From positions 372,001 to 436,000 of the forward strand of contig NZ_VAJL01000001.1 of NCBI RefSeq assembly GCF_006175945.1: a stretch of 64,000 nucleotides of DNA, given 5' to 3'. A program made the translations under genes and the position numbers. Numbering within the stretch: position 1 is the first letter of the stretch; each line of letters opens with the position of its first letter. Below, one piece after another: positions 51,007 to 63,140 of this stretch. The DNA comes from Chryseobacterium mulctrae. GTDB taxonomy: Bacteria > Bacteroidota > Bacteroidia > Flavobacteriales > Weeksellaceae. The notes beneath the pieces were generated by a model. The model did no database searches and was not told where the DNA came from. It was given only the letters and a program-made list of their open reading frames with translations.

Positions 51007-51690
51007 ATGAGTGAAAAAAGAAACATATCGAACAAACTTTTTGCAGAGCTTCGCAACCGTTTCAGCAATGAAATAAATAGCTCCTTTGAGATAAGGACTT
51101 TTAAAAAAAGAGAATTTATATACAGAAAAGGTAATAAGCCTAAAGGTGTGTATTTTATGAAATATGGGTGGGTTAAAATATTTAGGGGTGGCAATGAAGG
51201 TGATGAGGTTATATTGCGGATGCTTGGGCATAACGAATTTATTGGTTATGTATCTTTAGTAAAAGATACACCATACCCTGACAATGCCCAGGCATTAGAA
51301 TATTGCGAGCTATACTTTTTTCCCCGAAATGTATTCCTCACACTTATACATGAGAACTATGATTTTACCAGGTCAATTATTCAAATGTTGTGTAATGAGA
51401 TAAGGAGCAGTGAAAAAAAAATTGTGAACCTGCATTCAAAGAAAATTGATTCACGGTTGGCTACTTTATTATTAGATCTCGAACAGGCATCTGAAAATAG
51501 CCCTGTGCATGATGACAGCCTGATTCGTTTACCTAAAAAAGATTTGGCTAAAATAATAAACATTAGCCCTGAAACGCTTAGCAGGTATTTAACCAGGTTT
51601 CAGGAATCCGGACTTATTAAATCTATAAACGGAATGATTGAACTTTTAAGAAAAGACAAATTATTTAAAATATCAAATATGAACGATTGA
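51007..51690 (+). CDS. Crp/Fnr-family regulator with FNR-type recognition helix
   Basis: A 227-residue regulator. The frame opens at 50947, but MSEKRN at 51007 fits the family. The jelly-roll sensor domain (REFIYRKGNKPKGVYFMKYGWVKIFRGG) lacks the N-terminal iron-sulfur cysteines of FNR. The HTH reads LAKIINISPETLSRYLTRFQESGLI, with Glu-Thr-Leu-Ser-Arg equal to the E--SR set by which FNR reads TTGAT. An exact FNR-type box lies 18 bases downstream of its stop, before hsp20. Likely the local activator of the stress island. Signal unknown. Confidence 0.85.
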   Translation: MSEKRNISNKLFAELRNRFSNEINSSFEIRTFKKREFIYRKGNKPKGVYFMKYGWVKIFRGGNEGDEVILRMLGHNEFIGYVSLVKDTPYPDNAQALEYCELYFFPRNVFLTLIHENYDFTRSIIQMLCNEIRSSEKKIVNLHSKKIDSRLATLLLDLEQASENSPVHDDSLIRLPKKDLAKIINISPETLSRYLTRFQESGLIKSINGMIELLRKDKLFKISNMND

Positions 51691-51707
51691 ACAAATTTTT
51701 TCAGTGT

Positions 51708-51752
51708 CTTGATTTGAATCAAGGAAAAGCATTTCTAAAATACATAACTTTG
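51708..51752 (+). promoter_or_regulatory. FNR-type box and -7 element before the hsp20 operon
   Basis: CTTGATTTGAATCAAG (51708-51723) contains a perfect TTGATnnnnATCAA box. TAACTTTG (51745-51752) matches the Bacteroidota -7 consensus TAnnTTTG exactly. With transcription starting near 51756 the box centre (51715.5) is at about -41, the class II activator position. hsp20 starts at 51802. Confidence 0.75.
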
Positions 51753-51801
51753 ACTAGAATTATTTTCAATTATTCGTTTTTAACCTTAAAAATTAAAAAT
51801 T

Positions 51802-52242
51802 ATGGCACTAGTAAAAACAAATTATCCACTATTCGGAAATCTTTTTGATGATTTCTTTGGCACCGAATTGGCCGATTGGAGAAACCAAAACTTTTCGGCT
51901 ACCAACACCACACTTCCTAAAGTAAACATTAAGGAAGACGAAAATGGGTTTGTAGTTGAAATGGCTGCGCCGGGTATGAAAAAAGGCGATTTTAAAATTA
52001 ATGTTGATAACAGCCTGCTTACAATTTCTTCGCAAAAGCAGGAAGAACAAAAAGAGGGCGAAGGTGAAAAATACACCAGGAGAGAATTTGCCTACCAGGC
52101 TTTCACCCGTTCCTTTACCCTGCCCAATAGCGCCGATGCTGATAAAGTCAGCGCTTCTTACAACGATGGTATTTTAACCGTTACTATTCCAAAAAAGGAA
52201 GAAGCTAAGCCTAAACCGCCAAAAAGCATTGAAATTTCGTAA
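51802..52242 (+). CDS. Hsp20/alpha-crystallin small heat-shock protein
   Basis: ATP-independent holdase that keeps unfolding proteins soluble. The 146-residue product has an N-terminal arm (FDDFFGTELADWR), an alpha-crystallin domain from about residue 36 (LPKVNIKEDENGFVVEMAAPGMKKGDFKI to DGILTVTIPKKEE) and a C-terminal KPPKSIEIS tail with an I-x-I-like motif. First gene after the FNR-type promoter, and separated from the second hsp20 by a strong hairpin. Confidence 0.93.
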   Translation: MALVKTNYPLFGNLFDDFFGTELADWRNQNFSATNTTLPKVNIKEDENGFVVEMAAPGMKKGDFKINVDNSLLTISSQKQEEQKEGEGEKYTRREFAYQAFTRSFTLPNSADADKVSASYNDGILTVTIPKKEEAKPKPPKSIEIS

Positions 52243-52252
52243 TTTATTATAA

Positions 52253-52281
52253 CAGGTCATCGCAATTTTTGCGATGACCTG
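52253..52281 (+). other. Perfect hairpin between the two hsp20 genes
   Basis: Arms CAGGTCATCGCAA (52253-52265) and TTGCGATGACCTG (52269-52281) around a three-base loop, without a following T run. It may act as an RNA-processing or stability element, or a weak terminator, giving more of the first Hsp20. Confidence 0.65.
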
Positions 52282-60457: not shown

Positions 60458-61033
60458 ATGAACACATTTAAAAAACTGATAATAATAGCTCTTATACTCT
60501 TTTTTGGGTATTTGATTTTGCGTATGGTTTTAAATAGTGAAAAGACAGAACCTTTTACATACGAGATATTTGCAGCCATTATAGGTTTCACAATAACTGC
60601 CCTAACAACCTGGTCGTTGCTGGGGAAACAAACCGAAAATGAGCTTAACAAAGAGGTACGTATTCGTTATTTAACTTTAAAAACGACCATTTACCAGGAA
60701 CTTATAAGGCAATTGGAAGATATTGTGCGTAAAGAAAAGATTACCCACGAGGATATAATAGAATTAAGGCTTTTAAGCCAACGAATGATTTTTATTGCTG
60801 GTGAAAATGTTTTGGTTGCGTTCAATAAGTTTGTTATCCGGTTTGTTAAGCTGGCGAAAAATGAAAAGATTTCTGAAAAAGACCTGGATGATTTGTTAGA
60901 TGAAATGTCAATGGTTTCGGTTGAAATAAGAAACGATATTTTAGATAATAAGGTAAAGCAAGATATGGATGTTCAATCCTTTGAAAAACTTATTCTTAAA
61001 ACAAATGAACTTATGGATTTTTCGGATAATTGA
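60458..61033 (+). CDS. Membrane-anchored helical protein of unknown function
   Basis: A 191-residue protein whose ATG directly follows the channel stop. Two hydrophobic helices (LIIIALILFFGYLILRMV and EIFAAIIGFTITALTTWSLL) are followed by a long charged helical part (EVRIRYLTLKTTIYQELIRQLEDIVRKEKI) that should lie in the cytosol. No family recognised. Coupling to mscS suggests a regulatory or structural partner of the channel. Confidence 0.65.
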   Translation: MNTFKKLIIIALILFFGYLILRMVLNSEKTEPFTYEIFAAIIGFTITALTTWSLLGKQTENELNKEVRIRYLTLKTTIYQELIRQLEDIVRKEKITHEDIIELRLLSQRMIFIAGENVLVAFNKFVIRFVKLAKNEKISEKDLDDLLDEMSMVSVEIRNDILDNKVKQDMDVQSFEKLILKTNELMDFSDN

Positions 61034-61058
61034 TATTGTCAGCCCCTAAACCGTCAAT

Positions 61059-61137
61059 ATGGCATTTTTCTACCAAATAAAAATGTCATAATGATATCAT
61101 TGTTGCTGTAGCACTTAAGTTCATTATAAATTAAGTG
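61059..61137 (+). promoter_or_regulatory. Inverted repeats before dnaK
   Basis: ATGGCATTTTT (61059-61069) pairs with AAAAATGTCAT (61079-61089) with one G-U, and CACTTAA (61112-61118) with TTAAGTG (61131-61137). The first could end the preceding transcript, the second could be an operator. No CIRCE element is present. Confidence 0.4.
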
Positions 61138-61174
61138 ATAAAACTGGGTATTAACAAATAAAATATTACAAGAT

Positions 61175-63088
61175 ATGGGAAAAATTATAGGTATTGACTT
61201 AGGAACAACCAACTCCTGTGTAGCTGTTATGGAGGGTAATGAACCTGTTGTAATTCAAAACAGTGAGGGTAAAAGAACCACCCCATCTATTGTGGCTTTC
61301 ATGGAGAATGGAGAAAGAAAAGTAGGCGACCCTGCCAAACGTCAGGCTGTAACCAACCCCCAAAACACCATAAGCTCAATAAAGCGTTTTATGGGTAAAA
61401 AATATGGCGATGTGGGGGAAGAATTAAAAAACATTTCTTACGAAGTGGTTTCAGGTGATAATGAAACCGTAAGAATTAAAATTGGCAAGAAGAAATATAC
61501 CCCACAGGAAATATCGGCTATTATTTTGCAAAAAATGAAATCAACCGCCGAAGATTATCTGGGACCGGAAGTTAAAGAAGCAGTAATTACTGTACCGGCC
61601 TATTTTAACGATGCTGAACGTCAGGCAACAAAGGAAGCTGGACAAACAGCAGGGCTTGAGGTAAAAAGAATTATCAATGAGCCTACTGCTGCTGCACTGG
61701 CCTATGGCCTTGATAAGAAAAACAAAGATGTGAAAGTTGCTGTGTACGACCTTGGTGGAGGTACATTTGATATTCCATTCTTGAACTTGGCGATGGTGTA
61801 TTTGAGGTAAAATCAACCAACGGGGATGTGCATTCGGGAGGAGATAATTTTGATGATGTGATTATCAATTGGCTGGCTGAAGAGTTTCAGAAAGATGAAG
61901 GCATGGATTTGAAAAAAGATCCAATGGCGCTTCAACGATTAAAAGAGGCAGCTGAAAAAGCGAAGATAGAGCTTTCCAGTTCTTCGGAAACAGATATTAA
62001 TTTACCGTACATTATGCCGGTTGATGGTGTACCAAAGCATCTTGTTAAGAAATTAACGCGAGCAAAATTTGAACAACTTGCTGACGAGTTAATAAAAAGG
62101 GCTATGAAACACGTGAAAGCTGCCCTAAAAGATGCAGGGCTCTCAACTTCTGATATAGATGAAGTGATTTTAGTCGGTGGGGTCAACCCGAATTCCAAAA
62201 ATACAGGAAGAGGTTGAGAAATTCTTTGGTAAAAAACCATCAAAAGGTGTAAATCCTGATGAAGTGGTAGCCCTTGGCGCAGCAATTCAGGGAGGTGTAC
62301 TGACTGGTGAAGTTAACGATGTGTTGTTGCTTGATGTAACCCCACTTTCTTTTGGAATTGAAACTATGGGAGGAGTGTTTACCAAATTGATTGAAGCCAA
62401 TACTACAATTCCGGCCAAAAAATCTGAAATATTTTCAACAGCAGCTGATAATCAGCCGTCAGTAGAAGTTCATGTTTTGCAAGGGGAACGGCCCATGGCA
62501 AAAGATAACAAAACAATTGGCCGTTTCCATTTAGATGGAATAGCGCCTGCACCCAGAGGAATTCCTCAAATTGAAGTAACATTCGATATTGATGCCAATG
62601 GAATATTAAACGTAAGTGCTAAGGATAAAACTTCCGGTAAAGAACAAAAAATCAGAATTGAAGCTTCATCCGGATTAACCGAAGAAGAAATTAAAAGGAT
62701 GAAACAGGAGGCAGAGGCAAATGCCGAATCTGATAAGCAGGCCAGAGAAAAAGTTGATAAACTAAATCAGGCTGACTCTCTTATTTTCCAGACCGAGAAG
62801 CAGCTCAAAGAATATGGCGATAAAATTTCTGCCGGAAACAAAAGCGCAATTGAAGGGGCATTGGGCCGTTTAAAAGAAGCGTACGGCAAACAGGATGTTC
62901 CAGCCGTTGAAGCAGCAATGGATGAGTTAAACAAAACGTGGCAAAGGGCTTCACAAGAAATATATCAGGCTCAACAAGCTGCTTCGGGCGGAAGTTCGGC
63001 CAATAGTAATGGAATACAGGCTAATAATTCAAATGATGTAGAAGAAGCTACTGATGTTGAATTTGAAGAGGTTGACGATAATAAATAA
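61175..63088 (+). pseudogene. dnaK: DnaK chaperone, with two compensating frameshifts
   Basis: Hsp70 that would work with the CbpA-type DnaJ and Hsp20 of the island. Segment 1 (MGKIIGIDLGTTNSCVAVMEGNEPVV ... YDLGGGTFDI) is the ATPase lobe. One T is missing near 61772, shifting the frame; segment 2 (ELGDGVFEVKSTNGDVHSGGDNFDDVI ... DEVILVGG) follows. One extra G in GGGG near 62178-62184 returns the frame: STRIPKIQEEVEKFFGKKPSKGVNPDEVVALGAA, substrate domain and an acidic VEFEEVDD tail. Full length would be about 637 residues. A second housekeeping dnaK is expected elsewhere. Confidence 0.88.
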
Positions 63089-63106
63089 TGGCTATCTGCT
63101 TTGTAT

Positions 63107-63140
63107 AAAAAAAGGTTGCTTTTTCGAGCAACCTTTTTTT
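63107..63140 (+). terminator. Terminator of dnaK
   Basis: Perfect 14-base arms AAAAAAAGGTTGCT (63107-63120) and AGCAACCTTTTTTT (63127-63140) with a six-base loop. It ends the stress island and also overlaps the stop of the minus-strand kinase remnant. Confidence 0.92.

What the first reader, a model, noticed from the sequence alone, without database searches (positions are those of the whole stretch)
51007..63140. Bacteroidota stress-tolerance island analogous to the transmissible locus of stress tolerance
A single-strand block joins two hsp20 genes, yfdX, a membrane zinc peptidase, cbpA-type dnaJ, hdeD, a kefB-type antiporter, an MscS channel, a sigma-like gene and dnaK, under an FNR-like regulator and bounded by gene fragments. 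Hsp20-YfdX-HdeD-KefB are also core members of the proteobacterial locus (LHR/tLST), but ClpG, FtsH and DegP are replaced by a DnaK/DnaJ pair and a sigma factor. The order and the parts seem to define a distinct version.
Basis: partly seen in the sequence, partly recalled or inferred. Interest (0 to 1): 0.88.

Follow-up and report, generated by a model that had tools for sequence, protein, structure and literature searches.

The report
Mobile protein-repair island with hibernation-sigma fusion
A block of heat- and stress-protection genes that moves between distantly related Bacteroidota carries an unusual regulator, a ribosome-hibernation-like domain joined to a transcription sigma factor; the copy in this genome is a shortened, partly broken one.

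Summary
The block is real and horizontally transferred: 97-99% identical DNA lies in Sphingobacterium alimentarium, Niabella defluvii, a Flavobacterium MAG, Epilithonimonas bovis and one unnamed family relative, while housekeeping dnaK of the four named hosts is 71-86% identical to this genome's. Its HPF-sigma gene is in 1 of 173 genomes of the genus.

Other copies carry ftsH (complete only in Fulvivirga), thioredoxin and clpB between dnaJ and the sigma gene; Fulvivirga also has DegP, Dps, KefB, MscS and an intact dnaK. The window is a deletion derivative with a UspA-like remnant at the junction, a truncated Zn-peptidase and a frame-broken dnaK.

It works like the proteobacterial tLST but fails membership: ClpB instead of ClpG/ClpK, 36% G+C, no DNA match.

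The parts
48092..50810 (.). Left flank of fragments: DUF6428 C-terminal piece (48356-48655), 116-aa ORF (49306-49656), IS3 transposase remnant (50244-50642). Shared with E. bovis from 48092.
50811..51006 (.). Recurrent left edge: the main matches to the Niabella, Flavobacterium MAG and G712 copies begin at 50811
51007..51690 (+). Crp/Fnr-family regulator, 227 aa (cNMP_binding + HTH_Crp_2)
51802..52242 (+). Hsp20 small heat-shock protein a
   Evidence: PF00011, 1.1e-28
52322..52759 (+). Hsp20 small heat-shock protein b
   Evidence: PF00011, 2e-27
52781..53725 (+). YfdX, lipoprotein-type N-terminus (by eye)
   Evidence: PF10938, 1.2e-32
53868..54351 (+). Remnant of a small lipoprotein-like gene (by eye); open part 53983-54351, 122 aa, the same ORF length in L009, L012 and G712 and 122 aligned residues in L011
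54634..55278 (+). Zn_peptidase_2 membrane metallopeptidase, cut by an in-frame stop shared with E. bovis; 242 aa in L009, 241 aa in G712
55375..56343 (+). CbpA-type DnaJ
   Evidence: DnaJ, DnaJ_C
56344..56517 (+). Deletion junction with a UspA-like N-terminal remnant (from 56413; Usp E 2e-4, 22.3 bits, below cut-off 24), also in L011, L012 and G712; L009, L010 and L013 have ftsH-trx-clpB here
56518..56811 (+). HPF/RaiA-fold domain (residues 1-98) of the HPF-sigma fusion
56836..57507 (+). ECF-type sigma part (residues 107-330: region 2, acidic linker, region 4)
57513..57872 (+). 119-aa protein of unknown function overlapping the HPF-sigma stop by 4 nt; 7 homologues in the protein search
58090..58713 (+). 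HdeD-type DUF308 membrane protein, 53.6% identical to tLST HdeD-GI
58732..59901 (+). Na_H_Exchanger-family antiporter, KefB-like membrane domain (KefB model 132.5 bits, below its cut-off 804)
59972..60457 (+). Short MscS-type protein
   Evidence: PF00924, 1.6e-10
60458..61033 (+). 191-aa protein of unknown function
61175..63088 (+). Second dnaK, split over three ORFs in two frames; the housekeeping dnaK is elsewhere (C1:3711886)
63106..63141 (+). Terminator-like hairpin with T run after dnaK (by eye)
63175..63427 (.). Last DNA shared with the Niabella copy (99.6%)

Best explanation
This is the shortened copy of a horizontally moving Bacteroidota proteostasis island. SHOWN: near-identical copies lie in different classes of Bacteroidota; fuller copies encode sHsps, DnaK, DnaJ, ClpB, FtsH, thioredoxin, YfdX, antiporters and an MscS channel; a conserved gene inside encodes a domain with the predicted HPF/RaiA fold joined to an ECF-type sigma factor. 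INFERRED from family knowledge: sHsps hold unfolding proteins, DnaK/DnaJ/ClpB disaggregate them, FtsH and the Zn-peptidase clear damaged membrane proteins, and YfdX, HdeD, KefB and MscS handle envelope, pH and osmotic stress, so the cargo backs up the host's own system. INFERRED, least certain: the HPF domain binds idle or damaged small subunits, so that ribosome state controls how much of the sigma reaches RNA polymerase at stress promoters, while the protein may also protect the bound ribosomes. In this genome ftsH-trx-clpB is lost, the Zn-peptidase truncated and dnaK interrupted; the Hsp20s, YfdX, DnaJ, HPF-sigma, HdeD and transporters remain open and probably use host ClpB, FtsH and DnaK.
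Against: No expression, binding or survival data. HPF-likeness of the clade-2 and stand-alone domains is weak (direct profile comparison 0.7%). Pfam S30AE never reaches its cut-off, and one match of the same size (E 0.071) fell on the sigma part of L053. The 7 stronger sigma-only relatives have no HPF-like ORF in the 9-15 kb fetched. The model has pLDDT 72.5 and a low-confidence linker; Foldseek alone gave nothing at E 0.001. Whether the window's dnaK frame changes are mutations or assembly errors is open: they are not shared by the other two copies.
Confidence: 0.62

Rival explanations
1. It is a true tLST that crossed from Proteobacteria to Bacteroidota and diverged, so the shared parts descend from one ancestral island.
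For: HdeD is 53.6% identical to HdeD-GI; YfdX is 38-42%, Hsp20 32-44%, Trx 39% and DegP 44% identical to the tLST versions. The 12 plasmid rows listed (of 330 records) for window HdeD are all annotated hdeD-GI. HdeD-type proteins in four other Bacteroidota yfdX loci are only 24-29% identical.
Against: Different disaggregase (ClpB), different order; Zn_peptidase_2, DnaJ, DnaK and HPF-sigma are not annotated in the tLST stretch examined; KefB 27%; 36% G+C against about 61% (PMC8290217). FtsH is 47-51% identical to the 25 plasmid FtsHs listed of 351, but none of these was identified as a tLST FtsH, so that comparison is open.
Confidence: 0.2
2. In this genome the island is a decaying relic without function.
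For: Lost ftsH-trx-clpB, truncated Zn-peptidase, lipoprotein remnant, split dnaK, scrap on both sides.
Against: Eleven genes remain open, and their proteins are 93-99% identical across L009, L012 and G712 (Niabella's frames are broken and give lower figures). E. bovis, G712 and L011 have the same ftsH-less form.
Confidence: 0.2
3. The HPF-sigma protein is a PhyR-like partner-switch protein: its sigma part titrates an anti-sigma factor (perhaps the overlapping 119-aa protein) and does not start transcription; the N-domain is an RNA-binding module not tied to ribosomes.
Confidence: 0.25

Closest known systems
[quoted passage not shown] LHR, TLPQC) of Proteobacteria
   Same: Mobile and IS-flanked; sHsp20s, a Hsp100 disaggregase, FtsH, YfdX, HdeD, thioredoxin, KefB and DegP families (spread over the Bacteroidota copies; no single copy examined shows all)
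   Different: ClpB instead of ClpG/ClpK; adds DnaJ, DnaK, Zn_peptidase_2, MscS, Crp/Fnr regulator and HPF-sigma; no match to PsiE or HtpX among the genes compared; different order; 36% G+C; no DNA-level match on plasmids
tLST of Methylobacillus flagellatus KT (PMC8290217, section 11 read)
   Same: A tLST variant described as carrying a sigma-24-like factor
   Different: No HPF domain is mentioned in the section read; KefB is missing there
Balon (baeRF) stress operons (PMC10901736, abstract and passages seen)
   Same: Hsp20, DnaK, DnaJ, alternative sigma70, HdeD and RaiA reported as neighbours in stress operons; two sigma-only relatives here sit beside a baeRF-family gene
   Different: RaiA and sigma are listed as separate neighbours; no fusion in the passages seen; no baeRF match among the window's block proteins scanned
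HibA of Archaea (PMC13324472, abstract, section 11 and passages seen)
   Different: Partner is a CBS module, not a sigma factor; Archaea
HPF/RaiA/YfiA ribosome hibernation factors
   Same: Predicted fold and topology of the first 98 residues; basic charge (pI 8.8-10.1)
   Different: Remote in sequence; fused to a sigma factor; ribosome binding untested

Membership tests
tLST | dna-hsp20-clpG/clpK core | tested here: not met
   No Hsp100 in the window's block; the L009 Hsp100 passes ClpB (1242.3 vs 1232.1 bits) and fails ClpK (772.9 vs 1900) and ClpG (785.2 vs 1900)
tLST | YfdX, HdeD, Trx, KefB, FtsH and DegP modules | tested here: inconclusive
   Present as families across copies: YfdX, HdeD and KefB-like in the window; Trx and FtsH in L009, L010, L013; DegP in L013. 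No single copy examined has all: hdeD was not seen in Fulvivirga, degP not in the others
tLST | More than 80% DNA conservation and about 61% G+C (PMC8290217) | tested here: not met
   No megablast match among 72,556 plasmid records; 36.4% G+C over 50811-63427
tLST | Flanked by mobile elements | tested here: met
   IS3 remnant at left; transposases in L009 and L012 (by sequence); Niabella copy between stretches homologous to this genome's tra/mob region
tLST | Heat, pressure and chlorine tolerance | not testable with these tools
   needs culture work
HPF/RaiA (S30AE) | beta-alpha-beta-beta-beta-alpha fold over the whole domain | tested here: met
HPF/RaiA (S30AE) | Pfam PF02482 gathering score | tested here: not met
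   Best 19.6 vs 23.7 bits (G037a); 1 of 11 A2 members matches at E 0.054
HPF/RaiA (S30AE) | Binds the ribosome | not testable with these tools
   -
ECF/sigma-70 | Regions 2 and 4 with curated model score | tested here: met
   TIGR02937 57.0 vs 42.9; PF04542 28.2 vs 24; region 4 alone is below its cut-off (14.8 vs 24.1)
ECF/sigma-70 | Directs RNA polymerase to promoters | not testable with these tools
   -

The most novel reading that the evidence does not exclude
The HPF-sigma fusion is a new class of transcription initiation factor that reads ribosome state directly: its hibernation domain docks on idle or heat-damaged ribosomes and thereby holds or releases a sigma factor dedicated to proteostasis genes. 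One polypeptide would couple ribosome hibernation to chaperone transcription, and it spreads on mobile islands.
Probability: 0.3. Interest if true: 0.9.

Novelty: new variant of a known kind. Interest (0 to 1): 0.72.

Why it matters
A Bacteroidota counterpart of tLST, built on ClpB-DnaK-DnaJ rather than a stand-alone disaggregase, would show that whole proteostasis sets are assembled and traded more than once. The HPF-sigma fusion offers a direct, testable physical link between ribosome hibernation and sigma-factor control, two stress responses normally studied apart.

Tried and rejected
Replacement hypothesis (DnaK/DnaJ and sigma in place of ClpG/FtsH/DegP): rejected once ftsH, trx, clpB (L009, L010, L013) and degP (L013) were found.

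Plasmid origin: no plasmid match. Complete ICE around the window copy: none of the 36 PF00589 integrase matches lies between C1:222163 and C1:851464 (other recombinase families were not searched), and no tRNA was found in the window or the four loci scanned, although tra and mob genes lie about 17-39 kb downstream (named by eye). Empty site: 1 of 40 genus genomes, besides short matches in others, has a long match to the left neighbour gene (80%); the 1.5 kb beyond that gene there has no match in the 142 kb of this genome that I compared, so no empty site was shown.

119-aa protein: model pLDDT 57.5, not interpretable, so no fold search was run. No Pfam match at E 0.1.

First HPF profile comparison used a housekeeping set containing wrong ORFs and gave 11.1%; one search repaired most of it but one wrong row remained (71.6%); one search is the clean version with 10 sequences (91.0%). 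The 19-row stand-alone/clade-2 profile against HPF gave 0.7%; the link rests on three intermediates from G007 and G037 (87.1% to HPF, 99.5% to that profile). No gene trees were built, and sigma-promoter motifs were not searched.

My first dnaK comparison gave 78% for Epilithonimonas because the alignment ran into neighbouring genes; dnaK alone is 86%.

The 46 yfdX loci come from a scan with two YfdX peptide patterns, so their co-occurrence counts are conditioned on yfdX; searches do not use yfdX.

Literature: no print record of an HPF-sigma fusion or of a Bacteroidota tLST appeared (open-licence library only; one search listed 10 of 180 papers). Not proof of absence.
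Full report
What is there. The window is G000:C1:372001-436000 of a 4.87 Mb, four-contig genome. From 51007 to 63088 the listed genes lie on one strand: Crp/Fnr regulator, hsp20, hsp20, yfdX, lipoprotein remnant, Zn_peptidase_2, dnaJ, sigma-like gene, 119-aa ORF, HdeD-type DUF308 protein, Na_H_Exchanger antiporter, short MscS, 191-aa ORF, dnaK. Three genes are damaged: the Zn-peptidase has an in-frame stop, dnaK is spread over three ORFs in two frames, and the small lipoprotein-like gene is a remnant. A full-length housekeeping dnaK lies elsewhere.

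It moved between distant hosts. One scan of a collection holding one genome for each of 84,980 species, with a YfdX alignment, gave 46 loci. Four hold the block at 97-99% DNA identity: Sphingobacterium alimentarium (L009), Niabella defluvii (L010), a Flavobacterium MAG (L011) and Epilithonimonas bovis (L012, 13.1 kb at 98.8%). A family relative, G712, has 10.3 kb at 97.8%. The first, second and fourth belong to the classes Sphingobacteriia, Chitinophagia and Flavobacteriia. Housekeeping dnaK of this genome is 86% identical to that of Epilithonimonas, 75% to the Flavobacterium MAG, 72% to Sphingobacterium and 71% to Niabella. HPF-sigma occurs in 1 of 173 genomes of the genus, its own. The 4,022-bp hsp20b-dnaJ stretch is full length in 3 of 296 genomes of the family (own, G664, G712); the other 88 matching genomes share only a short dnaJ stretch. 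G664 has the contig length and block position of the E. bovis record, so G712 is the only extra carrier in that count. YfdX is in 2 of 395 phylum genomes. In Niabella the block lies between stretches homologous to this genome's tra/mob region.

The window copy is a deletion derivative. L009 and L010 have about 3.5 kb more between dnaJ and the sigma gene: a C-terminal ftsH piece, thioredoxin and a Hsp100, 876 aa in L009. Fulvivirga kasyanovii (class Cytophagia; L013 plus L182; 67-71% DNA identity in the shared stretches) has the fullest order: hsp20, degP, Crp/Fnr, dps, hsp20, hsp20, yfdX, Zn-peptidase, dnaJ, ftsH (631 aa), a 94-aa ORF, trx (in two reading-frame pieces), clpB, HPF-sigma, 119-aa ORF, a second antiporter, kefB-like (72% aa), mscS-like (46% aa), dnaK (635 aa, open). 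hdeD was not seen there. In the window a UspA-like remnant (from 56413; Usp E 2e-4, 22.3 bits, under the cut-off of 24) sits at the junction. L011, L012 and G712 have the same remnant; L009, L010 and L013 do not. L012 and G712 lack the ftsH-trx-clpB DNA (the E. bovis record there is G664), and L011 runs straight from dnaJ to sigma. Because Fulvivirga and G007 (below) share the dnaJ-ftsH-trx order with L009, loss in the window lineage is the simpler reading. E. bovis carries the same in-frame stop in the Zn-peptidase, whereas the gene is 242 aa in L009 and 241 aa in G712. dnaK is interrupted in the window, in L009 and in L010, at different places. The Niabella assembly breaks its housekeeping dnaK too, so its breaks prove nothing.

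Relation to tLST. Against an E. coli plasmid tLST (L078): HdeD 53.6%, YfdX 41.6 and 37.6%, Hsp20 32-44%, Trx 38.8%, DegP 44.4%, KefB 27.0%, ClpB against ClpK 44.4% (Trx and ClpB from L009, DegP from L013). FtsH could not be compared, since that tLST holds only a 46-aa FtsH fragment. The Hsp100 passes the NCBI ClpB model and fails the ClpK and ClpG models. The published core is dna-hsp20-clpG with over 80% DNA conservation and about 61% G+C (PMC8290217, section 11 and part 1 of section 7 read); this block has 36.4%. That section names beta-, gamma-, alpha- and delta-Proteobacteria and Deinococci, and a word search of the paper's text found no Bacteroid*. So it works like tLST but is not filed as one. 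HdeD, however, is nearer to HdeD-GI than to the HdeD-type proteins of four other Bacteroidota yfdX loci (24-29%), so this one gene may share a source.

Modules fused and split. Among the 46 yfdX loci (12 shorter than 8 kb, so counts are lower bounds), an HPF-like ORF at E 1e-3 or better occurs in 26 and a sigma-like one in 15. They are fused in 12 (L010 with broken frames, L017 cut by the contig end), separate genes in 3 (L039, L040, L053), and HPF-like alone in 11 (L042 in two pieces). dnaJ lies within 5 kb of yfdX in 19 and hsp20 in 16. These counts are conditioned on yfdX. The independent test searched 395 phylum genomes with the fusion itself: 20 matched at 1e-6. Three of the 20 have the fusion: own; G007, in the order hsp20-dnaJ-127 aa-ftsH-trx-HPFsigma; and G037, in the order HPFsigma-99 aa-yfdX-HPFsigma-ftsH. 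Seven are sigma-only at E below 1e-20. Of these, two lie near hsp20, one near dnaJ and two beside a baeRF-family gene, the only two candidates scanned; none has an HPF-like ORF in the 9-15 kb fetched. Ten are weak matches to the C-terminal part only; the neighbourhood of one of these was fetched and showed flagellar-type genes by eye (L181). In G007 and G037 the neighbouring FtsH is 64-67% identical to the island FtsH, against 47-55% for host FtsHs of over 490 aligned residues.

Limits of the HPF claim. Clade-2 and stand-alone domains compare poorly with HPF directly (0.7%) and are linked through the G007/G037 N-domains (87.1% to HPF, 99.5% to the stand-alone/clade-2 profile). Pfam S30AE stays below its cut-off everywhere (best 19.6 against 23.7 bits). 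Of the 8 stand-alone domains scanned, 2 gave an S30AE match (E 0.0055 and 0.055), and one match of E 0.071 fell on the sigma part of L053, a reminder that such E-values occur by chance.

Context in print. Balon stress operons are reported to hold Hsp20, DnaK, DnaJ, alternative sigma70, HdeD and RaiA (PMC10901736, abstract and passages). HibA of Archaea fuses HPF/RaiA to a CBS module (PMC13324472, abstract, section 11 and passages). No paper on an HPF-sigma fusion was seen in the listings. In a tLST of laboratory E. coli, deleting sHsp20, clpK, sHsp-GI, pscA, pscB or hdeD lowered heat and chlorine resistance (PMC8407380, passages), which supports, by analogy only, a role for the retained Hsp20 and HdeD.

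Mechanism. Shown: cargo families, transfer, predicted fusion architecture, losses. Inferred from family knowledge: hold-and-disaggregate proteostasis with envelope and ion homeostasis. Hypothesis: the HPF domain ties sigma availability to ribosome state. The direction (ribosomes sequester sigma, or recruit it) cannot be told from sequence. The 119-aa protein, encoded with a 4-nt overlap, is a candidate partner or anti-sigma, untested.

Noticed in passing
window 23624-27988: A 1454-aa protein with a full ACR_tran (RND pump) domain (5-1030) and an outer membrane efflux (OEP) domain at its C-terminus, beside a membrane-fusion-like protein (22369-23622, by eye).
   Followed up: partly
window 31763-42832: Minus-strand set with an AAA ATPase (33116-34432, PF00004) and a 1327-aa alanine-rich protein (38112-42095); may belong to a phage-tail-like injection cluster. 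Only the ATPase and one 200-aa neighbour (no Pfam match) were scanned.
   Followed up: partly
window 20-20527: Apparent pectin or rhamnogalacturonan utilisation locus (SusC/SusD pair, glycoside hydrolases, lyase-like genes), by eye.
   Followed up: no
G000:C1:447839-448717 and 493398-494276: Two transposase-like ORFs of the same length (292 aa) with the same printed N-terminus, in opposite orientation about 45 kb apart, enclosing the tra/mob region beside the island.
   Followed up: no
L174:5654-6832 and L177:6971-8122: baeRF-family (Balon-related) genes beside sigma-only relatives of the fusion, with hsp20 or dnaJ nearby: a second physical link between this sigma family and ribosome hibernation.
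   Followed up: partly
L010:7478-7954 and L157:13095-13358: RND efflux (ACR_tran) gene fragments lie just left of the island edge in both Niabella and G712, hinting at an ancestral efflux-pump neighbour.
   Followed up: partly
G395 (Niabella defluvii CP079215; now Paraniabella in the NCBI taxonomy): Housekeeping dnaK and the island genes are both frame-broken, suggesting indel errors across this assembly.
   Followed up: partly
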